NCBI GenBank assembly: GCA_003583745.1
Contig: QXPY01000005.1
Location: 124,001-188,000, forward strand
DNA: 64,000 nucleotides
Direction of reading: 5' to 3'
From: Rhodocyclales bacterium GT-UBC
Lineage (GTDB): Bacteria; Pseudomonadota; Gammaproteobacteria; Burkholderiales; Rhodocyclaceae
The translations under genes were made by a program, and so were the position numbers. This document shows positions 25,432 through 56,204 of this stretch, in pieces; position 1 is the first letter of the stretch; each line of letters opens with the position of its first letter. Below the pieces are notes generated by a model that saw only the letters and a list, made by a program, of their open reading frames with translations, searched no databases and had not been told where the DNA came from.

Positions 25432-25451
25432 CCCAACCATGAAACACAATG

Positions 25452-25482
25452 AAAAAAGCCCGTCTTGAAGACGGGCTTTTGC
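25452..25482. terminator. Bidirectional intrinsic terminator between soxZ and csp
   Basis: Arms AAAAGCCCGTCTT (25454-25466) and AAGACGGGCTTTT (25468-25480) form a hairpin with A-run and U-run on opposite sides, so it can end both soxYZ (plus) and the cold-shock gene (minus). Confidence 0.9.
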
Positions 25483-25500
25483 TTGTAAGCGATCCGGTGC

Positions 25501-25704
25501 TTAGGCGCGCTGGATGTTGGAAGCCTGCTTACCCTTGGGGCCTTGCACGACTTCGAAGGAAACCTTTTCGCCTTCCTTCAGGGTCTTGAAGCCATTCATG
25601 TTGATGGCGGAGAAGTGGGCGAAGAGATCTTCGCTGCCATCATCAGGAGTGATAAAGCCAAAACCTTTGGAATCATTAAACCACTTGACGGTGCCAATTG
25701 CCAT
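25501..25704 (-). CDS. Cold-shock domain protein, CspA family
   Basis: A 67-residue single-stranded nucleic acid binding protein with RNP1 KGFGFITPD and RNP2 LFAHFSAI. It acts as an RNA chaperone; expression may be general or cold-induced. ATG 25704 gives the standard N-terminus [18 protein letters not shown]. The 270 bases between this gene and clpS (25705-25974) contain no gene; they must hold the leader and promoter of csp and the clpS promoter. A long leader would fit cold regulation, but no structure was proven. Confidence 0.95.
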
Positions 25705-25974
25705 GTCTGAAACTTTCTTACAAAAAACTAACAAATTACGGGTCTCCCCGACTCCCTGTTTGAGCTCAGCAACCCGGCGCTTGCGGCATTTCCGATGCAT
25801 CACGAATCCAAACACGTCTTGCTTTCTACGCCAAACGAATTATCGCGTCAACATTTTTTGATGCTGCTCTGCAGCATTGCAATTTGCAAAACCACACCAA
25901 TATATTGACAAAGCGACAAAACACAGCCTCTCGTTTCTGTTGCAGAATGAAGGCGACTGTATAGAATCGAAATC

Positions 25975-32947: not shown

Positions 32948-33206
32948 CAGGCCCTTGCCGTCACCCAGTAAATCGCCCGACAGGTCGGGACGAACAAAAA
33001 ACAGTCCGGGACAAATCGGATACGCATGAACCGGGAGACTTTGCCATGGGCATTCGGCAATCCCGCTGCCATAGGATGAACCTTTAGGCCGGTGACTTTG
33101 CGTACCCGGCTTTCGCCCGGGGTTGCTATTAACGGGGCCGATACTAACCGACGAGATACATGACAATCAATTCAATTTGACTGTCAATGCGAAAGAGTCC
33201 GAAAGA

Positions 33207-48932: not shown

Positions 48933-49946
48933 CTAGGCGACGCTTACCCTGACCTGTTGTTCAAGCGGCTCGAAGCTGAAACGCACCGGCAGGAATGCCT
49001 CGATCACCTCGCAGTTGGTCCGCAGGTGCGACGACAGCACCGTCGTCGTCAGGCTGCCCTGGCCGGCCAGGGCCATCGGCAACAACAGCTGGTCGGCCAG
49101 ATACTCGCCGACCGGCGCGCCACTGGCACGGAACAGCCGGGCCTCGCGCGCCGCCCGGTCGGCCACCACTTCGGCGGGCACGCCGCGTTCGCCAAACGCA
49201 GTGAAGACCTCGCTCACCTCCGGGTAGTCGAGCACCAGCATCAAGACGTTGCCCGGCCCCTCGTTGCTCGGCAGCACGCGCAACTCCTCGTCGAGCACGC
49301 CGAGCTGGCCGGCCGCCCGCTGCATCTCGCGTTTGGCAACCTCGGCCGGCACGCCGGCCACCACCCCGACCGCCGCCTGACGCCGCAGATCGCCCCGCGT
49401 ATTCAGGCGCAAGGGTTGCCAGGCGGCGACCGGCGCCGTCGCCGCCAGTACCTCGCCGCCACCCGCCGGGTAAAAGCCGTGGCGCAGCAACTGGATATCC
49501 AGCGTCACGCCCATGCGGCGCAGCAGCGGCTGCCAGCTGCGGATCAGGAAATCGGCCGGCGGCGCGGCCGGGTTATGCGTGCCGCCGCTGACCCGCAGGG
49601 TGCTCGGGCCATCGGCAAACCACAGCGCCGGCAACACCGTCTGCAGCACCAGGGTGGAACTGCCGGCCGAGCCGATGGCATGGCGATAATCCCCACCCCG
49701 CACCGGCCCCGGCGTGAAACGCAGTTGCTGCGAGCCGGCCACCGCCCCTTCCACCTCGGCCCCGCACACCGCCGCCGCAGCCTGCACCGCCGTCAGATGC
49801 TGGCGCAACAGCCCTGGCTTCTTGCGCCCGGCCCGAATGCGCTCGATGGCAAAAGGCGTCCCGGTAATCATCGACAGGCTCAAGGCTGTCCGCAAAATCT
49901 GGCCCCCGCCCTCACCGCGGGAACCATCAAGTTCTAAGCATTCCAT
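48933..49946 (-). CDS. rtcA: RNA 3'-terminal phosphate cyclase
   Basis: RtcA converts RNA 3'- or 2'-phosphate ends to 2',3'-cyclic phosphate with ATP through a covalent His-AMP. The 337-residue protein has EGGGQILRTALSLSMITG, GGTHNPAAPPADFL and the catalytic His at about 307 in SSHLRTN. It is the last gene of the RNA repair operon, 15 bases after the nucleotidyltransferase gene. In Salmonella RtcA activity is needed for induction of the operon. Confidence 0.95.
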   Translation of the reverse strand: MECLELDGSRGEGGGQILRTALSLSMITGTPFAIERIRAGRKKPGLLRQHLTAVQAAAAVCGAEVEGAVAGSQQLRFTPGPVRGGDYRHAIGSAGSSTLVLQTVLPALWFADGPSTLRVSGGTHNPAAPPADFLIRSWQPLLRRMGVTLDIQLLRHGFYPAGGGEVLAATAPVAAWQPLRLNTRGDLRRQAAVGVVAGVPAEVAKREMQRAAGQLGVLDEELRVLPSNEGPGNVLMLVLDYPEVSEVFTAFGERGVPAEVVADRAAREARLFRASGAPVGEYLADQLLLPMALAGQGSLTTTVLSSHLRTNCEVIEAFLPVRFSFEPLEQQVRVSVA

Positions 49947-49961
49947 ATCTTTTCTTTTTCG

Positions 49962-50783
49962 TTATCCAGACACCGCCAACACCGTCCGCATCAGAAACGC
50001 ATCCAGTTCGACGGCATCGCCTTCCGGCTTCTTGTAATCGGCATCGACCACACCCCGCGCCAATTCACTTTCGATGAAAGCGTGAATATGCGGCCAGCGC
50101 GGGCTGTATTCGGCCTCGCCGGCGCGCATCTTGATGGCCAGCAGGGCGTTGATTTCTTCGCGCAGCGCCGCGTCCGTCACCAGCTGTTCGGCCAGATCGG
50201 CGAAGCGCATCGGCGGCTGGCCGAGGCTGCGCTCGATCCATTGCACTGCCAGTAGCGGACGCAGCACGTAGAGGTACTTCTTTAGCCGCACCCGGTCGCC
50301 TTGCAAGTGCTCGCGAAAATTACGCCGCGCCATCGCCAGATAGTGATAGCGCCCGCGCTTTGGGGAAAACCACTGCCTTGCCAAATCGCGAATGCCTGCG
50401 CTCAAGGCCTTGTCCTCCCGATAAACCACCGGCGAATCCAGCCACTCGAGCAGCACCGGATTGGCCCGCCGCAAGAGGCGCAGCGCCTTGCGCAACTCCC
50501 AGCCGCCGACGTCGAGTTCGTCGCTGATCGGCAATTCGATCACATCGCGCTTCGCCTCGACGGCCAGATACCACGGCAGGCGATGGACGTAGAGAAAACG
50601 CACGTCGTAATCGCTGTCCGGCGAGGCGAAACCCCATCCCCGGCTGCCCGACTCGCAGGCGTAGAGGACCGTGACATCGTGTTCGGCCTCGATCTCCTCC
50701 AGCGCCTGCATGACCCGCCGGCGAACCGCTGGGTCGATCGGGTGGGCGCTGAGGACCTTGCGGCCTTCCAAACATTCAGACAT
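49962..50783 (-). CDS. Predicted nucleotidyltransferase in the RNA repair operon
   Basis: A 273-residue protein of the YcgL-type nucleotidyltransferase family (COG3541). The metal-binding motif is GSRGWGFASPDSDYDVRFLY (GS, then DxD). It lies between rtcB (3 bases) and rtcA (15 bases). Its reaction is not known; adding nucleotides to, or adenylylating, damaged RNA ends is one possibility in this setting. ATG 50783 is preferred to GTG 50786. Confidence 0.85.
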   Translation of the reverse strand: MSECLEGRKVLSAHPIDPAVRRRVMQALEEIEAEHDVTVLYACESGSRGWGFASPDSDYDVRFLYVHRLPWYLAVEAKRDVIELPISDELDVGGWELRKALRLLRRANPVLLEWLDSPVVYREDKALSAGIRDLARQWFSPKRGRYHYLAMARRNFREHLQGDRVRLKKYLYVLRPLLAVQWIERSLGQPPMRFADLAEQLVTDAALREEINALLAIKMRAGEAEYSPRWPHIHAFIESELARGVVDADYKKPEGDAVELDAFLMRTVLAVSG

Positions 50784-50786
50784 CAC

Positions 50787-52004
50787 TCATCCTTTCACAC
50801 ACACCACCTGCCGCAAGGTATGCACCACTTCCACCAGCTCGCGCTGGGCGTGCATCACGGCGTCGATATCCTTGTAGGCCATCGGGATTTCGTCGATCAC
50901 GTCGCTATCCTTGCGGCATTCGACGTGGGCGGTGGCCTTGATCTGGTCGTCCACGGTGAAACGGCGTTTCGCCTCATTGCGGCTCATGGTGCGACCGGCG
51001 CCGTGGCTGCAGGAGCAGAAGGATTCTTCGTTACCCAGGCCGCGCACAATGTAGCTGCGGGCACCCATCGATCCCGGAATGATCCCGAGTTCGCCCTTCT
51101 TGGCCGACACCGCGCCCTTGCGCGTCACCAGCACCTCGCTACCGAAGTGGGTTTCGCGCTGCACGTAGTTGTGGTGGCAGTTCACCGCTTCGATATCGGC
51201 CGCGAACGGCTTGGCGATGACCTGACGGGCCGCGGCAACCACGTTGACCATCATCGCGTCGCGGTTGCGGCGCGCGTAGTCCTGCGCCCAACCGACGGCT
51301 TCGACGTAATCGGCGAAGTGCTCGGAACCTTCCTCGAAGTAGGCGAGATCCTTGTCCGGCAGGTTGGCGAGGTGCTGGCGCATATCGGCCTGGGCCAGTT
51401 CGATGAAATGGCTACCAATGGCGTTTCCCACCCCGCGTGACCCGGAGTGCAACATGAACCAGACCTGATCGGCCTCGTCCAGGCACACCTCGATGAAGTG
51501 GTTACCGGTTCCCAGGGTTCCCAGGTGCTTGTAGTTATTGGTGTTCTTCAGGCGCGGATACTTCTCGGTGATGCGCTCGAAACCCGGGCGCAGCGCGGCC
51601 CACATCGCGTCGACCACGGCCGGCGGGTTTTCCCAGGAACCTTTATCGCGGCGACCCTGCGTCACGGTGCGCCCGTGCGGCACGGCGGCCTCGATGGCCG
51701 AGCGCAGGCCGTGCAGGTTATCCGGCAAATCGGCGGCGGTCAGCGTCGTGCGGGCCGCCATCATTCCGCAACCGATATCGACCCCGACCGCAGCCGGGAT
51801 GATCGCGCCCTGGGTCGGGATTACGCTACCGATGGTCGAACCCTTACCCAGGTGCACGTCCGGCATCACCGCCAGGTGGCGGAAGATGAAGGGCATTCTG
51901 GCCGTATTCATCAACTGCTTGCGTGCGTCATCCTCGACCGGCACGCCTTCGGTCCACAACTTGATCACCTTGCCTTGGCTCACTGCCTGAGTCTGGTACG
52001 TCAT
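50787..52004 (-). CDS. rtcB: RNA-splicing ligase RtcB
   Basis: RtcB joins RNA 2',3'-cyclic phosphate or 3'-phosphate ends to 5'-OH ends using GTP and manganese. The 405-residue protein has GVDIGCGMMAA (metal-binding Cys), HSGSRGVGN, and CSHGAGRTMSR with the His that takes GMP. ATG 52004 has AAAGGAAAAG upstream. A 285-base gap before it holds a tRNA-like RNA. Confidence 0.97.
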   Translation of the reverse strand: MTYQTQAVSQGKVIKLWTEGVPVEDDARKQLMNTARMPFIFRHLAVMPDVHLGKGSTIGSVIPTQGAIIPAAVGVDIGCGMMAARTTLTAADLPDNLHGLRSAIEAAVPHGRTVTQGRRDKGSWENPPAVVDAMWAALRPGFERITEKYPRLKNTNNYKHLGTLGTGNHFIEVCLDEADQVWFMLHSGSRGVGNAIGSHFIELAQADMRQHLANLPDKDLAYFEEGSEHFADYVEAVGWAQDYARRNRDAMMVNVVAAARQVIAKPFAADIEAVNCHHNYVQRETHFGSEVLVTRKGAVSAKKGELGIIPGSMGARSYIVRGLGNEESFCSCSHGAGRTMSRNEAKRRFTVDDQIKATAHVECRKDSDVIDEIPMAYKDIDAVMHAQRELVEVVHTLRQVVCVKG

Positions 52005-52069
52005 TTTCTTTTCCTTTCTAACCCGCAGCGCGATGGTAACGGCTGCGCGGCAATTCATATTGCATTAGT

Positions 52070-52153
52070 TGGTGGGCACGGCGGGACTCGAACCCGCAGT
52101 AAGCCGCCATCGGGCATTACACCGATGTGCGGAGAAGCTTTAAACGCGCGCCA
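52070..52153 (-). ncRNA. tRNA-like RNA with encoded CCA between zinc-ribbon gene and rtcB
   Basis: On the minus strand TGGCGCG (52153-52147) pairs with CGTGCCC (52080-52074) except for the first position, giving an acceptor-like stem followed by A and an encoded CCA (52070). A canonical T arm (GCGGG, loop TTCGAGT, CCCGC) precedes the 3' strand. The centre is one long hairpin: CCGC and GCGG plus CATCGG and CCGATG with an 8-base loop. No D arm is visible. It is 84 bases, co-transcribed with the repair genes. The rest of the 285-base gap holds no gene. It is not a normal tRNA; a YrlA-like role is possible. Confidence 0.7.
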
Positions 52154-52289
52154 TTCCTGGAACCTTGCGCAGACCCCGGAACTGCATCCTCAAATACCGC
52201 TCCCCGCCGAAGCTTTCGGTTTTACCCTTCACCGGTCTCGTCACCTGTTTACCGGCCGCTCGCCGTTTCGCGTTCGTGCCCTTGTTCGT

Positions 52290-52715
52290 TCACCGCCCAC
52301 AGGCCGTTTCCGCCAGCCACGCCAGTTTCCGCAAGCGGCCGGCCAGCGAGGTCTGCCGCGCCTGTTCCTTGCGCTGGCGTTCCCTGGCCCGGCAGGCGGC
52401 ACAGCGCTTGGCCCGCGTGTATTGCCCGCCGCCGGCGGTTTCGTACCACCAGCGTTGCCGTTCGGCGGTCCAGATCTCTGCGGCACCGCAATCGCAGCAG
52501 GTGAAGGCTTGATCGACGTAATAGCCGCGCAGGGCGAAATCGCTCATGCCGTAGCTGTTGTCGATGGCCAGCTTGCTGTAATCGACCAGGACGATACGGC
52601 CCGTCGGACGTAGCGCCGCGACCCGCCGGGCCGCCCCCGCCAACTGGCGGCGGGCCAGCCGGGCGGCCCTGATTTCGGCCCGGCGCTGCTTGCAGCTTTT
52701 TCGTACTTTCGTCAT
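52290..52715 (-). CDS. Zinc-ribbon protein in the RNA repair operon
   Basis: A 141-residue basic protein. The first 30 residues are very rich in Arg and Lys (MTKVRKSCKQRRAEIRAARL) and could bind RNA. A zinc ribbon is formed by C73/C74/C76 and C105-x-x-C108 (FTCCDCGAAE and RCAACRARER). ATG 52715 has AGGAG 9 bases upstream. It lies 34 bases after the slipin gene. A role in recognising damaged RNA is inferred. Confidence 0.78.
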   Translation of the reverse strand: MTKVRKSCKQRRAEIRAARLARRQLAGAARRVAALRPTGRIVLVDYSKLAIDNSYGMSDFALRGYYVDQAFTCCDCGAAEIWTAERQRWWYETAGGGQYTRAKRCAACRARERQRKEQARQTSLAGRLRKLAWLAETACGR

Positions 52716-52749
52716 GCCTTCTCCTTTCTGCCGGCAATCCGGCCCATTC

Positions 52750-53886
52750 TTACTTCGTCAGCGTCACCAGCCCGTTCAACACCTGATCGAGGCCACCGAA
52801 GACCGAGATGCGGTCGATCCGTTCGGCCACCCGTTCCAGGGTTTCCAGTTCTTTCAAGCGCAAGGCAACCGGGTTGTCTTCCATCACCTTGGCGGTATTG
52901 AGCAACGAACGGGTCGCCGCCGTTTCCTCGCGCCGGCGCAAGACATTGGCTTCCGCCGCCTTGCCGGCTTCCACCACCTGCGCCAGGATGGCTTTCATCT
53001 CGCCCGGCAGCACGATGTCCTTGACGCCGACGCCGCCGATTTCGAGACCGAACCCAGCCAGTTTTTTGGCGACATGCTGGCTCACCACCTCGTCGATCAA
53101 CTGTTTGCTCTCCAGCAATTCGTCGAGGTTGCGCGTGCCGACCACCGCCCGCAGGCCGAATTGCAGCTCGCGGTAGAGGTGTTCGGCCGGCTTCGCCAGC
53201 TTGGCGAAAGCCGTGCTCACGTCGTCAAAACGCCAGGTGGCGGCGAGGTTGAGACGCAGCCCGACCTTGTCGCGGGTAAGGATTTCCTGGCCGCTCACTT
53301 CCATGGTCTGCCAGCGCAGATCGACCAAATCCACTTGCAGATCGCGGTTGAAGCGCCAGTAGGCGGTCACGCCCGGCGACAGCAAGGGCTGTTGCACGCC
53401 GTCGATACGCAGCAAGCCGACATGCGCCGCCGGCACCTGCACGACCAAAACGCCGTTCAACCCCGACACCGGGCGACCGCGCAGCGACGGCTGCAACAGG
53501 CGTTTCACCATGACAGCCGGCAAGGCGGCACTGGTACGCAGATCGACCTTCTCCAGCCGATGCGCCACCACCCCGCGCCAAAAGAAGCGGCGGGCGGCCG
53601 GCGGCAACACTTCAACCAGGACTTCGTTTTCGTAACGCAGCCCGACTTCGTCCTCATTCATTTCCATGCAAACGAAATGGCGCTCGGCTTCGGCCGGCTC
53701 GTTCTGGCGCAGGTAATCGACGAGATCGCTATCGAGCATCGGCGTATCGGTGTGCCACACGGTCAGCGACAGCTCGTTGAACGGGTCAAACAGGTAGTGA
53801 CGACCCGGATTGAGGATGCGCTGGAAATCGCCATTGCGCAGCAGGGCGGCCCGTTCATTCTTCTTCACGATGAAACGCTTCAACAT
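52750..53886 (-). CDS. Slipin (SPFH/band 7) family protein
   Basis: A 378-residue SPFH-domain protein. The N-terminus (MLKRFIVKKNERAALLRNGDFQRILNPGRHYLFDP) has the slipin beta-barrel start but no clear membrane helix, and the band 7 core is at about residues 155-300 (LLSPGVTAYWRFNRDL onwards), followed by a helical tail. Slipins form rings or scaffolds on membranes. It is the first protein gene of the RtcR-controlled operon. ATG 53886 has AGGGAGAAG upstream. Confidence 0.85.
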   Translation of the reverse strand: MLKRFIVKKNERAALLRNGDFQRILNPGRHYLFDPFNELSLTVWHTDTPMLDSDLVDYLRQNEPAEAERHFVCMEMNEDEVGLRYENEVLVEVLPPAARRFFWRGVVAHRLEKVDLRTSAALPAVMVKRLLQPSLRGRPVSGLNGVLVVQVPAAHVGLLRIDGVQQPLLSPGVTAYWRFNRDLQVDLVDLRWQTMEVSGQEILTRDKVGLRLNLAATWRFDDVSTAFAKLAKPAEHLYRELQFGLRAVVGTRNLDELLESKQLIDEVVSQHVAKKLAGFGLEIGGVGVKDIVLPGEMKAILAQVVEAGKAAEANVLRRREETAATRSLLNTAKVMEDNPVALRLKELETLERVAERIDRISVFGGLDQVLNGLVTLTK

Positions 53887-54171
53887 TTTTCTTCTCCCTC
53901 TTTGACACACATCGTCTTCAAAATTCGTCATTCAACTTGCCGGCTCACGCCGGTCCGGCGGGCGTTCCGGTCGGCTCCTGCGGGGGAGCCGCCGGTGCGG
54001 GCAATCCGGGCTGGCAGCGGCCGGGACATCGCCCCGGCCACGCGGCCCGCTTGCCCTGACACCGACTGCCCTGCCGCACAAGCGGACCGAAGCGCCGGGC
54101 CGGACCGGCGGCGGGTGCTTGCGCATGCCGCAGCCGACGGGTACTGCAACTTCACTGTCGTTAAAGGACAG
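53887..54171 (-). other. Hairpin-rich leader of the RNA repair operon
   Basis: No protein gene. On the transcribed strand several perfect hairpins follow the tRNA: ACTGTC/GACAGT with a 7-base loop (next to the tRNA end), GGCCGGG/CCCGGCC with a 7-base loop (54019-54039), CGGCTCC/GGAGCCG with a 6-base loop (53972-53991), and CCGGC/GCCGG with a GTGA loop (near 53940-53953). They may protect, process or regulate the transcript between the tRNA and the slipin start. Confidence 0.5.
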
Positions 54172-54244
54172 TTTTGGAGCGGGAGTCGAACCCGCGACAG
54201 ACCGTTGATGAGACGGTTGCTCTACCCGACTGAGCTATCCAAAG
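54172..54244 (-). tRNA. tRNA with CAU anticodon inside the rtc operon leader
   Basis: A complete cloverleaf on the minus strand, 73 bases: acceptor CTTTGGA/TCCAAAA (6 pairs, first pair C-A mismatched), D stem GCTC/GAGC with loop AGTCGGGTA, anticodon arm ACCGT-CTCATCA-ACGGT (anticodon CAT in DNA), 5-base variable loop, T arm GCGGG-TTCGACT-CCCGC. CCA is not encoded. The C1-A72 mismatch recalls initiator tRNA, but the D stem C-G pair and the lack of three G-C pairs in the anticodon stem do not. It may be a Met/Ile2-type elongator or a dedicated decoy. It abuts the upstream tRNA-like segment with no gap. Confidence 0.8.
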
Positions 54245-54372
54245 GGGGGATGACCGGGAATCGAACCCGAACGAACCACCTGGCACCCCGATATCGCTTT
54301 CCCGCGACGGCGGCATACGGCGGAATGACCGGATTGCTCCGAACCCCACCGCACCGGCGGGGTGGAACCCCC
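54245..54372 (-). ncRNA. tRNA-like segment with T arm, first element of the rtc transcript
   Basis: On the minus strand there is a good T arm (TCGGG, loop TTCGATT, CCCGG at 54270-54254) followed by a 3' acceptor-like strand TCATCCCC. GGGGGT at 54372-54367 can pair with ATCCCC, enclosing 128 bases, too long for a tRNA. Inside are a CCCCGCCG/CGGTGGGG hairpin and a weaker copy of the T-arm/acceptor block (GGTCATTCC near 54325-54345), as if two tRNA 3' ends were repeated. It is probably a degenerate or fused tRNA-like element. Confidence 0.45.
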
Positions 54373-54413
54373 TGCCCGTCGGCCTTGCCGCAAGTCGGCG
54401 ATGGCTTTCTTAT

Positions 54414-54429
54414 TGCGAGAGATGTGCCA
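54414..54429 (-). promoter_or_regulatory. Sigma-54 promoter of the RNA repair operon
   Basis: TGGCACATCTCTCGCA on the minus strand matches the sigma-54 consensus TGGCAC-N5-TTGCA with one change, with GG and GC exactly at -24 and -12. Transcription should start near 54403, just before the tRNA-like elements. RtcR, encoded divergently, is the expected activator. Confidence 0.85.
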
Positions 54430-54596: not shown

Positions 54597-56204
54597 ATGA
54601 AAAAAACGGTCGTCATCGGTTTTCTCGGCACCCAGCTCGACTACGCCGGCAAGGGCAGCCCGCGCTGGGACAAATGGCGGCCGACGGTGGCGCTGTGCCA
54701 GCAGGAAGATCTGGTCGTGCATCGGCTGGAACTGATCCACGATCTGCGCAACCGCAGCCTTGCCGAGCGCATCGGCAACGACATCGCCCGCATTTCGCCG
54801 GAAACCGAGTTCAAGCGGCTGGAAATGGAATTGCGCGACCCCTGGGATTTCGAGGAGGTCTACACCGCCCTGCACGAACTGGCGCGCAACTATCCCTTCG
54901 ACACCGAGAACGAGGATTACCTGATCCACATCACCACCGGCACGCACGTCGCGCAGATCTGCTGGTTCCTGCTCGCCGAGGCGCATTACCTGCCGGCCCG
55001 CCTGCTGCAGACCTCGCCGCCGCGCAAGAAGGAGATTGCCAACAGCGTCGGCAGCTACGAGATCATCGACCTCGATCTGTCGCGCTACGACCGCATCGCC
55101 CAGCGCTTCGCCCGCGAGCGCGACGACAACCTGTCCTTCCTCAAATCCGGCATCGCCACCCGCAACCCGGCTTTCAACCGGATGATCGAGCAGATCGAAC
55201 AGGTCGCCGGCCGCTCGCGGGCGCCGATGCTGCTGGTCGGCCCGACCGGCGCCGGCAAGTCCTTCCTCGCCCGCCGCGTCTTCGAACTGAAACGCCAGCG
55301 CCAGCAACTGAAAGGCCGTTTCATCGAGGTCAATTGCGCCACGCTGCGCGGCGATTCGGCGATGTCCACGCTCTTCGGCCACAGCAAGGGGGCGTTCACC
55401 GGCGCCCAGCAGGACCGGCCGGGCCTGCTGCGCTCCGCCGACGGCGGCCTGCTCTTTCTCGACGAAATCGGCGAACTCGGCCTCGACGAACAGGCCATGC
55501 TGCTCAAGGCCATCGAGGAAAAGCGCTTCTTCCCCTTCGGCAGCGACCAGGAAGCGAGCAGCGACTTCCAGCTCATCGCCGGCACCCACCGCGACCTGCG
55601 CCAGTGGGTGCGCCAGGGCAAGTTCCGAGAAGACCTTTACGCCCGCATCAACCTATGGACCTTCGACCTGCCCGGCCTCAGCGGCCGCCCGGAGGACATC
55701 GAACCCAACCTCGACTACGAACTGGAGCGCTTTGCCGCCGAACACGGCCAACTGGTGCGCTTCAACGTCGAGGCGCGGCGTCGCTACCTCGCCTTCGCGA
55801 CCTCGGCCAACGCCGCCTGGCGCGGCAACTTCCGCGAACTCGGTGCCTCCCTCACCCGTCTGGCGACGCTCGCCACCGCCGGACGCATTACCGAAAGCGA
55901 CGTCACCGACGAAATCGCCCGCCTCACCCACAGCTGGCGCGACGAAACCGCCGCCGATGCCTGCACGCAGGTACTCGGCAGCGCCGCCGAACAACTGGAC
56001 CTGTTCGACCGCTGCCAGCTCAATACGGTGATCGCCGTCTGCCGGACCAGCAGCAGCCTGTCGGAAGCCGGGCGACGCCTTTTCGCCAGCTCGCGGGTCG
56101 AAAAAAAGCAAAGCAACGATGCGGATCGACTGCGCAAATACCTGGCGCGCTTCGCACTCAAATTCGAGCTGTTGCGCCAGAATGTTCAGATCGCCATAGA
56201 CTGA
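54597..56204 (+). CDS. rtcR: RtcR, sigma-54 dependent activator with CARF sensor domain
   Basis: RtcR activates the RNA repair operon. In Salmonella its divergent CARF domain binds 5' tRNA fragments ending in 2',3'-cyclic phosphate. Here residues 1-180 are the CARF-like domain (VVIGFLGTQLDYAGKG, DYLIHITTGTHVAQICWF), followed by the AAA+ domain with Walker A GPTGAGKS (215-222), GAFTGA (265-270) for sigma-54 contact and LLFLDE (285-290), and a C-terminal helix-turn-helix near residue 490. Length 535, start ATG 54597. It is divergent from the operon. Confidence 0.95.
   Translation: MKKTVVIGFLGTQLDYAGKGSPRWDKWRPTVALCQQEDLVVHRLELIHDLRNRSLAERIGNDIARISPETEFKRLEMELRDPWDFEEVYTALHELARNYPFDTENEDYLIHITTGTHVAQICWFLLAEAHYLPARLLQTSPPRKKEIANSVGSYEIIDLDLSRYDRIAQRFARERDDNLSFLKSGIATRNPAFNRMIEQIEQVAGRSRAPMLLVGPTGAGKSFLARRVFELKRQRQQLKGRFIEVNCATLRGDSAMSTLFGHSKGAFTGAQQDRPGLLRSADGGLLFLDEIGELGLDEQAMLLKAIEEKRFFPFGSDQEASSDFQLIAGTHRDLRQWVRQGKFREDLYARINLWTFDLPGLSGRPEDIEPNLDYELERFAAEHGQLVRFNVEARRRYLAFATSANAAWRGNFRELGASLTRLATLATAGRITESDVTDEIARLTHSWRDETAADACTQVLGSAAEQLDLFDRCQLNTVIAVCRTSSSLSEAGRRLFASSRVEKKQSNDADRLRKYLARFALKFELLRQNVQIAID

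What the first reader, a model, noticed from the sequence alone, without database searches (positions are those of the whole stretch)
48933..54429. RNA repair operon that carries its own tRNA and tRNA-like RNAs
One sigma-54 promoter appears to drive a tRNA-like segment, a full CAU-anticodon cloverleaf, slipin, zinc-ribbon, another tRNA-like RNA with CCA, RtcB, a nucleotidyltransferase and RtcA. Seen in sequence: all elements lie on one strand without a terminator between them. Known: RtcR is activated by 5' tRNA fragments with cyclic-phosphate ends, and RtcB/RtcA work on such ends. Inference: the encoded tRNA may be a sensor or decoy for an anticodon nuclease, so that its cutting amplifies the signal to RtcR and its repair by RtcB ends it.
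Basis: partly seen in the sequence, partly recalled or inferred. Interest (0 to 1): 0.88.

Follow-up and report, generated by a model that had tools for sequence, protein, structure and literature searches.

The report
tRNA-mimic RNA in RNA-repair operon
A bacterial operon that repairs broken RNA also seems to make a large folded RNA holding two tRNA look-alikes that probably cannot read codons; in relatives it goes with one scaffold-like protein, so it is more likely that protein's RNA partner than a working tRNA or a damage sensor.

Summary
In detail: after a sigma-54 site one strand runs tRNA-like element, CAU cloverleaf, Band-7 protein (slipin), zinc-ribbon protein, CCA-ended tRNA-like element, rtcB, rlaP, rtcA, with rtcR divergent. 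The double tRNA-like unit tracks slipin, not RtcR: it lies before slipin in 74 of 92 loci at 61 bits or more and was hit in 21 of 21 testable loci of a phylum sample, but not in 12 rtcR loci without adjacent slipin; where slipin follows rtcB it still sits before slipin. Its helices covary strongly, also in 18 loci not used for the model. The anticodon arm is hypervariable (7-nt loop in 39, short loop in 29 of 70) and CCA is hardly ever encoded. A cut-anticodon sensor is thus unlikely as the general role; an RNA partner of the Band-7 protein is likelier, a cis-acting leader the main rival. Burroughs & Aravind 2016 (not held; abstract recalled, cited by a preprint seen in passages) reported ncRNAs with Band-7/vault-like proteins in RtcB operons, so this is a new member of a known kind. 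Extra: some relatives carry arrays of divergent spare tRNAs.

The parts
54597..56204 (+). rtcR, sigma-54 activator with CARF-like domain, divergent
   Evidence: Pfam RtcR + Sigma54_activat; NCBIfam NF038308 845 bits, cut-off 650
54414..54429 (-). sigma-54 (-24/-12) site
   Evidence: TGGCACATCTCTCGCA, 1 mismatch; such a site in 57 of 61 relatives' leaders
53932..54400 (-). structured leader RNA, from the inferred start site to the slipin gene
   Evidence: MFE z -6.1 for 53890-54402, 100 shuffles; covariation
54246..54289 (-). tRNA-like 1: reduced tRNA (acceptor + T-arm, little between)
   Evidence: T-arm pairs in A2; acceptor partner found in 39 of 62 relatives tested, 6.5 expected; the window's own pairing scored 4.5, under the 5.5 threshold
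54172..54244 (-). tRNA-like 2: CAU cloverleaf, C37, C73, no CCA
   Evidence: ARAGORN, Rfam tRNA 54.1 bits, R1 124.3 bits together with tRNA-like 1 (the window is one of the model's rows)
54201..54217 (-). hypervariable anticodon arm of tRNA-like 2
   Evidence: 5 of 5 pairs with changes on both sides; loop classes over 70 loci
53948..54110 (-). 3' domain: long-range helices 54098-54110/53948-53959 and 54068-54083/53974-53989
   Evidence: 22 of 25 pairs with changes on both sides; score 0.537 against 0.240 shuffled (coordinates)
52750..53886 (-). slipin-like SPFH/Band-7 protein without an obvious membrane segment
   Evidence: Band_7 2.7e-28; KD19 maximum 1.45; AF2 model matches stomatin SPFH domains, less strongly the major vault protein
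52290..52715 (-). zf_Tbcl zinc-ribbon protein
   Evidence: Pfam 2.3e-10
52070..52152 (-). element 3: CCA-ended tRNA-like RNA, no clear D-arm, long hairpin, ends 65 nt before the rtcB ATG
   Evidence: sequence; T-arm before rtcB in 6 of 61 loci
50787..52004 (-). rtcB RNA ligase
   Evidence: Pfam RtcB 2.3e-132
49962..50786 (-). rlaP, RNA-repair nucleotidyltransferase
   Evidence: Pfam RlaP 1.8e-95
48933..49946 (-). rtcA RNA 3'-phosphate cyclase
   Evidence: Pfam RTC 4.6e-79

Best explanation
The leader of the operon is a large structured noncoding RNA (about 400-470 nt) built round two end-to-end tRNA mimics that keep the tRNA elbow (D-arm and T-arm) but, in most relatives, not a working anticodon or aminoacyl end. 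It is the cognate RNA of the operon's SPFH/Band-7 protein: when RtcR senses cut tRNAs, sigma-54 transcription makes the RNA and the protein together, the protein assembles as a cage or ring on it, and the tRNA-shaped handles bring tRNA-binding repair or decay enzymes (RtcB, RlaP, perhaps PNPase) and damaged tRNAs to one place, much as Y RNA works with Rsr/Ro60. Shown here: an RNA fold under selection, a sigma-54 site, linkage to slipin rather than RtcR, loss of decoding features. Inferred: that it acts as a separate RNA, the RNA-protein complex, and its job in repair.
For: Covariation: A2 0.396 vs 0.137 shuffled and at most 0.10 slid; A3 0.537 vs 0.240 and at most 0.11; 18 loci outside the model 0.543 vs 0.145 and at most 0.12, on an alignment fitted to the model. 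Linkage to slipin: 74 of 92 sources at 61 bits or more upstream of slipin, 9 weaker, 9 none (39 rows built the model, so partly circular). Phylum sample of 398 genomes: 23 have slipin; of 22 loci scanned (own left out) 19 hit at 74 bits or more, 2 at 38, 1 (L191) lies at a contig end and is untestable; L174 and L184 come from genomes already seen; 7 of 7 testable loci of other classes hit. Control: no match over 17.7 bits in 12 rtcR loci without adjacent slipin. Where slipin lies after rtcB (G015, G028, L056) the RNA sits before slipin. Decoding features: CCA in register in 1 of 70 and one base early in 4 of 70, seven acceptor pairs in 9 of 70, C73 in 44 of 70. Weak Rfam YrlA hits across the junction in 5 of 12 loci. 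Slipin model resembles stomatin and, less, the major vault protein; [quoted passage not shown]
Against: No binding, expression or knockout data. The unit was always seen just before slipin on the same strand, as a cis-acting leader would be, and the long-range helix ends about 60 nt before the slipin start. Either half can be missing: only element 2 is matched in the five Variovorax loci and L185, only element 1 is seen in L071 and six enterobacterial loci, neither in L038. A tRNA-like element also sits before rtcB in 6 of 61 loci. YrlA scores (28-34 bits) are far under the gathering score of 69. MVP Z of 11-12 is only 1-2 above ribosomal-protein rows at about 10, and the N-terminal half of slipin alone gives no clear match.
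Confidence: 0.5

Rival explanations
1. Cis-acting leader: the tRNA-like and long-range folded region controls slipin translation or read-through, for instance by binding a tRNA-processing or tRNA-repair enzyme (RNase P, RtcB) that competes with the ribosome.
For: Seen directly upstream of slipin on the same strand in every locus with the unit; long-range helix next to the slipin start with strong covariation; position follows slipin, not the promoter.
Against: Very large for a leader switch; tRNA mimicry is known in the Y RNA YrlA, which was studied as a separate RNA (PMC7790460, passages). The letters CCA lie between the T-arm of element 1 and element 2 in 26 of 62 loci, which a released tRNA-like RNA could use, but this was not tested against chance.
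Confidence: 0.25
2. One reading: tRNA-like 2 is a sensor or decoy for anticodon nucleases; its cut 5' half activates RtcR and RtcB repair ends the signal.
For: 5' tRNA fragments with cyclic phosphate bind RtcR (PMC7790460, passages); 39 of 70 keep a 7-nt loop, U33 in 30 of 39, 16 different anticodons, as an arms race might give; 16 of 18 in the phylum sample keep 7 letters in the loop; [quoted passage not shown]
Against: Not found in 12 of 12 rtcR loci without adjacent slipin; short loop in 29 of 70, GNRA 16, UUCG 4; at least 11 switches on the slipin tree; in Salmonella fragments of YrlA were not detected (PMC7790460). Odds raised from 0.10 to 0.12 because of the phylum sample's loops.
Confidence: 0.12
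3. Remnant or seed of a spare-tRNA reserve: such operons once carried arrays of divergent tRNAs to replace cut ones, and the tandem unit is the stable rest.
For: 8 loci hold co-oriented further tRNAs before the unit; most end in CCA, and where checked they duplicate anticodons found elsewhere in the genome at 51-78% identity.
Against: Most loci show no array; the unit is conserved where arrays are absent and lacks decoding features.
Confidence: 0.08
4. Ordinary tRNA gene parked in the operon and used in translation.
For: ARAGORN and Rfam accept it as a tRNA.
Against: C37, C73, no CCA, C1-A72; relatives with tetraloops in place of the anticodon.
Confidence: 0.03

Closest known systems
Band-7/SPFH (MVP-like) proteins with cognate ncRNAs in RtcB operons (Burroughs & Aravind 2016, NAR 44:8525; not held, abstract recalled as naming 'a novel tRNA-like molecule'; cited to this effect in PMC13404743, passages)
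   Same: Band-7 protein, ncRNA in the same operon, RtcB and its repair partners.
   Different: I could not read how their RNA is drawn; the two-element unit, the hypervariable anticodon arm, the covarying 3' domain and the arrays could not be compared.
Salmonella rsr-yrlBA-rtcBA operon with YrlA Y RNA (PMC7790460, passages)
   Same: RtcR-regulated operon with a tRNA-mimicking ncRNA and an RNA-scaffold protein gene.
   Different: The scaffold is Rsr (TROVE), not Band-7; YrlA reaches at most 34 bits in the loci tested here. TROVE was found in 1 of 150 genomes of the order, weakly.
Anabaena TrcR regulon (PMC10272220, passages)
   Same: Controls a reserve tRNA operon, rtcB and a slipin gene; derepressed by translation-blocking antibiotics.
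   Different: Repressor control, genes at separate loci, cyanobacterium, no RtcR.
Phage tRNAs altered in the anticodon loop (PMC10264068, abstract)
   Same: Extra tRNAs that keep the anticodon but differ around it, like the array tRNAs.
   Different: Phage genes, not an RNA-repair operon.

Membership tests
RtcR-controlled RNA repair operon | RtcR (CARF-like + sigma-54 activator) divergent from rtcB/rtcA with a sigma-54 site between | tested here: met
Band-7-associated ncRNA of RtcB operons (Burroughs & Aravind) | Band-7/SPFH gene with a tRNA-like ncRNA in an RtcB operon | tested here: met
   that the RNA is a separate ncRNA is inferred; definition from the recalled abstract plus PMC13404743 passages
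Band-7-associated ncRNA of RtcB operons (Burroughs & Aravind) | Same RNA architecture as the one they describe | not testable with these tools
   paper not held
YrlA-type bacterial Y RNA (RF02553) | Match over the Rfam gathering score (69 bits) | tested here: not met
   best 33.6 bits in 12 loci; window 32.0
YrlA-type bacterial Y RNA (RF02553) | Partner TROVE/Rsr protein in the genome | tested here: not met
   no TROVE match in the window's genome
Decoding tRNA | Match over the Rfam tRNA gathering score | tested here: met
   54.1 bits, gathering 29
Decoding tRNA | Purine 37, full acceptor stem, CCA or usual discriminator, conserved anticodon in orthologs (criteria recalled) | tested here: not met
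   C37, C1-A72, C73, no CCA in the window; short loop in 29 of 70 relatives
Vault (MVP) protein | Shoulder-like SPFH domain without membrane anchor, preceded by beta repeats | tested here: inconclusive
   VIA Z 11-12 to MVP, close to unrelated rows at about 10; no KD19 peak in the N-terminus; N-terminal part alone only weak, MVP Z 3.8

The most novel reading that the evidence does not exclude
RNA-repair operons with a vault-like Band-7 protein make a whole counter-kit against tRNA-cutting toxins: a scaffold RNA with tRNA mimics, in many lineages without an anticodon, that such toxins or repair enzymes bind but cannot cut, and in some lineages an inducible reserve of divergent, toxin-resistant tRNAs (tRNA-His in every array seen) that replaces the cut ones while RtcB mends them.
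Probability: 0.15. Interest if true: 0.85.

Novelty: new member of a known kind. Interest (0 to 1): 0.55.

Why it matters
It turns a vague 'tRNA-like molecule' into a defined, searchable RNA linked to one protein, and shows which reading to test first. If the RNA is the Band-7 protein's partner, RNA repair in bacteria may use a vault-like ribonucleoprotein, which bears on the open question of what vaults are for. The spare-tRNA arrays suggest that some bacteria may answer tRNA-cutting toxins by replacement as well as by repair.

Tried and rejected
A closing helix between the conserved ATGCCG motif upstream of tRNA-like 1 (found in 61 of 70 leaders) and the stretch after tRNA-like 2: good in some Rhodocyclales-like loci but not general, mean best score 4.97 vs 4.65 shuffled; rejected. 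R1 as a stand-alone genome-wide detector: rejected, because matches up to 89 bits occur in genomes where no slipin was found (G121; what they are was not looked at); the place next to slipin is what counts. First attempt at tRNA-like 1 acceptors failed by a script slip, repeated correctly. The statement that the cloverleaf is the less conserved half was dropped: either half can be missing. Invariance of the D-stem in A2 was not used as evidence, since the loci were picked by a pattern that asks for it; it was seen again in 18 loci picked by the model, which also leans that way. The vault reading of the slipin N-terminus: the N-terminal model alone had no Foldseek match under E 0.001, so it stays a lead. 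Phage origin: no slipin match in 50,697 phage records at E 1e-5. Plasmid records: 4 weak matches to the leader. PADLOC names only RtcR among the five proteins given. Literature: ten searches; no listed row was seen to describe such tRNA arrays inside rtcB operons; that is no proof of absence, as most subscription papers, Burroughs & Aravind 2016 included, are not held.
Full report
The window lies in a genome of 4.68 Mb (G000, contig 4). Among the 80 named loci returned, the nearest slipin (89% identity) is in a Rhodocyclales MAG (L014); the organism is thus probably a betaproteobacterium of that group (inference). The one same-genus genome in the sample (G111) has no match to slipin or RtcR, so the operon is accessory.

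Parts. On the - strand lie rtcA, rlaP, rtcB, a zf_Tbcl protein and a Band-7 protein (slipin); rtcR is divergent (NCBIfam equivalogs for RtcR and RtcA). Upstream of slipin ARAGORN and Rfam find one tRNA, CAU, 54171-54244. End to end before it lies a second, shorter element with a full T-arm (54246-54289). A weak Rfam hit to YrlA spans the junction of the two (32.0 bits). Between the zinc-ribbon gene and rtcB lies a third tRNA-like RNA ending in CCA (52070-52152).

Promoter. The sigma-54 site at 54414-54429 has one mismatch to TGGCAC-N5-TTGC (consensus recalled). Of 61 relatives with rtcR divergent from slipin within 1.2 kb, 57 have such a site with at most one mismatch, 54 of these at 135-162 nt from the rtcR hit start; 0.6 would be expected in mononucleotide shuffles. 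The pattern scan found no sigma-70-type promoter on the - strand and no strong terminator between the elements.

Relatives. A slipin search of 150 genomes of the order found 12 including the window's. Gene order by tblastn with ARAGORN shows tRNA-like calls some 250-330 nt before slipin in many loci, with anticodons that differ from locus to locus. Leaders were read directly (the print was cut in the middle).

RNA evidence. From 39 loci the unit (part of tRNA-like 1 and all of tRNA-like 2) was aligned (A2). RNAalifold gives the T-arm of element 1 and the cloverleaf of element 2 with a short acceptor. Pair counts: 92.5% of cells paired, 16 of 26 pairs with changes on both sides, score 0.396 vs 0.137 in shuffles (0 of 500) and 0.06-0.10 when slid. 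The anticodon stem changes on both sides at 5 of 5 pairs. The loci had been picked by a pattern that asks for the D-arm and T-loop, so the invariance of these says little there. In 18 loci of the phylum sample, not used in the model and aligned to it, the score is 0.543 vs 0.145 (slid at most 0.12), the D-stem is invariant in 18 of 18 and the anticodon stem again changes at 5 of 5 pairs. The stretch from element 2 to slipin (A3, 22 loci) has a long-range structure with 22 of 25 pairs changed on both sides, 0.537 vs 0.240, slid at most 0.11; the structure was derived from the same alignment, which favours it over slid versions. The window leader folds at z -6.1.

How common. The covariance model R1 over 92 sources (window, 11 loci, 80) gives a hit at 61 bits or more before slipin in 74; weaker hits (23-46 bits) in 9 (L009, L011, L047, L059, L062, L066, L068, L072, L091); none in 9 (L012, L038, L071, L076, L084, L088, L089, L092, L093). 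L076 cannot be tested (contig edge) and L012 holds only part of a slipin; L007 and L081 are one contig. Thirty-nine rows built the model, so this count is partly circular. A later test used a distant slipin (L010) on 398 genomes of the phylum: 23 have slipin; of 22 loci scanned, 19 hit at 74 bits or more, L174 and L185 at 38, and L191 is at a contig end. All 7 testable loci of other classes hit. As a rough null, the window's genome has 65 tRNA matches in 4.68 Mb, so a given 700-nt stretch would hold one in about 1% of cases (own estimate).

It follows slipin, not RtcR. RtcR was found in 16 of 150 genomes of the order. In the window and three loci with slipin beside rtcR the unit scores 92-124 bits; in the other 12 the best match is 17.7 bits, a 17-nt piece. 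These loci show only about 1.5 kb upstream of the RtcR domain; in four of them (L101, L102, L112, L113) neither slipin nor RtcB was recognised, and L112 and L113 are distant RtcR-like proteins. In G015 and G028 rtcB comes first and slipin later; there the unit lies between rtcB and slipin (G028 79 bits; G015 38 bits). L056 has the order rtcB-rlaP-rtcA-tRNAs-unit-slipin. L036, L046, L051 and L078-L081 have the unit and slipin but no RtcR match within 8 kb upstream; L046, L079 and L081 also show no RtcB in the locus. TROVE is nearly absent from the order: 1 of 150, weak, in a genome (G083) that also has slipin.

Not a decoding tRNA in most loci. Element 2 could be cut out by pattern in 70 of 92 loci (the other 22 were dropped). 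CCA follows position 73 in 1 of 70 and starts one base early in 4; seven acceptor pairs in 9; C at position 73 in 44. Anticodon arm: 7-nt loop in 39 with 16 different anticodons, U33 in 30 of 39, A37 in 25 and C37 in 11 of 39; short loops (4-5 nt) in 29, of which 16 GNRA and 4 UUCG; 2 other. On a slipin tree (70 rows, quick method, 22 open forks) at least 11 changes between 7-nt and short are needed; L048 (UUCG) and L049/L050 (7-nt) have nearly identical slipins. Against this: in the 18 loci of the phylum sample 16 keep seven letters in the loop and only 2 are shorter (by eye), so the short loops are concentrated in part of the family. Element 1 is reduced in steps: a matching acceptor strand is found in 39 of 62 (6.5 expected; 8 more loci had no T-arm by the pattern), with 13-16, 21-30 or 36-44 nt left between acceptor and T-arm; the window's own element scored below that cut.

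Either half can go. Only element 2 (without acceptor) is matched in the five Variovorax loci and L185. L071 and six enterobacterial leaders keep a T-arm of element 1 but show no element 2; L038 has no recognisable tRNA part but keeps the ATGCCG motif and the start of the 3' domain (by eye).

Element 3: a T-arm before rtcB was found in 6 of 61 loci: window, L014, L015, L059, L066, L068; a 22-nt R1 match at the like place in L062 lay outside the stretch counted.

Slipin. Sequence relatives in the PDB are stomatins, QmcA, HflK and HflC. No KD19 peak above 1.0 starts in the first 60 residues of 11 proteins, unlike membrane-anchored slipins (recalled). The AF2 model (pLDDT 79.5, pTM 0.58) matches stomatin SPFH domains best (VIA Z up to 17.4) and also the major vault protein (Foldseek E 4e-11 with TM only 0.36; VIA Z 11-12), but ribosomal-protein rows reach Z 10. 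The N-terminal 195 residues alone match only weakly.

Arrays. In 8 loci (L006, L033, L036, L051, L056, L075, L078, L080) further tRNAs stand before the unit on the slipin strand; all 8 include tRNA-His(GUG). L175 and L178 of the phylum sample also show tRNA-His upstream. L016 also has tRNAs, but beyond rtcR, and was not counted. Most end in CCA; His copies end in CCCA or CCCC. For three loci, tRNAs elsewhere in the genome were fetched in part (ARAGORN found 37, 26 and 32 tRNAs in the stretches taken from genomes with 57, 49 and 54 Rfam matches): a copy with the same anticodon was found for 5 of 5 (L051), 7 of 12 (L078) and 5 of 5 (L056), at 51-78% identity, and the anticodon stem-loop differs in 17 of 17 comparisons, in two of them by only one or two bases. 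So these are extra, divergent tRNAs that keep the anticodon. Of the three, only L056 has RtcR in view; whether any array is induced is unknown.

Literature. [quoted passage not shown] RtcB shares operons with MVP homologs), PMC13086221 (an SPFH gene, PaFlo8, lies in the P. aeruginosa rtc locus; the word tRNA does not occur in the main text), PMC10272220 (TrcR controls a tRNA operon, rtcB and a slipin in Anabaena), PMC9650030. Seen as abstract and outline: PMC10264068. Recalled only: the abstract of Burroughs & Aravind 2016, naming SPFH/Band-7 modules with cognate ncRNAs including a novel tRNA-like molecule.

Verdict. The kind was very probably reported in 2016. The partner-RNA model is favoured at about one in two, with a cis-acting leader the main rival.

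Noticed in passing
L006, L033, L036, L051, L056, L075, L078, L080 (upstream of slipin): Further tRNAs before the unit; where checked (L051, L056, L078) divergent copies with kept anticodons; tRNA-His(GUG) in 8 of 8, unexplained.
   Followed up: partly
window 52070-52152 (-): CCA-ended tRNA-like RNA before rtcB; T-arm there in 6 of 61 loci (window, L014, L015 and three Variovorax loci).
   Followed up: partly
L078:9226-10323, L079:9206-10333: An AAA ATPase gene follows slipin in two loci without RtcR.
   Followed up: partly
leaders of 61 of 70 loci: ATGCCG motif upstream of tRNA-like 1 without a general pairing partner.
   Followed up: partly
7-nt loops of tRNA-like 2: U36 in 29 of 39 while 34 and 35 vary: most keep NNU anticodons, as t6A-modified tRNAs do (recalled); common descent not removed.
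   Followed up: no
window 33053-33137 (-): c-di-GMP-I riboswitch, 67.5 bits, gathering 35.
   Followed up: no
window 25451-25758 (-): cspA thermoregulator-like match, 66.5 bits, under the gathering score of 78.
   Followed up: no
L026:2853-2977, L077:9334-9478: Weak R1 matches (22 and 19 bits) after slipin, perhaps further tRNA-like elements.
   Followed up: no
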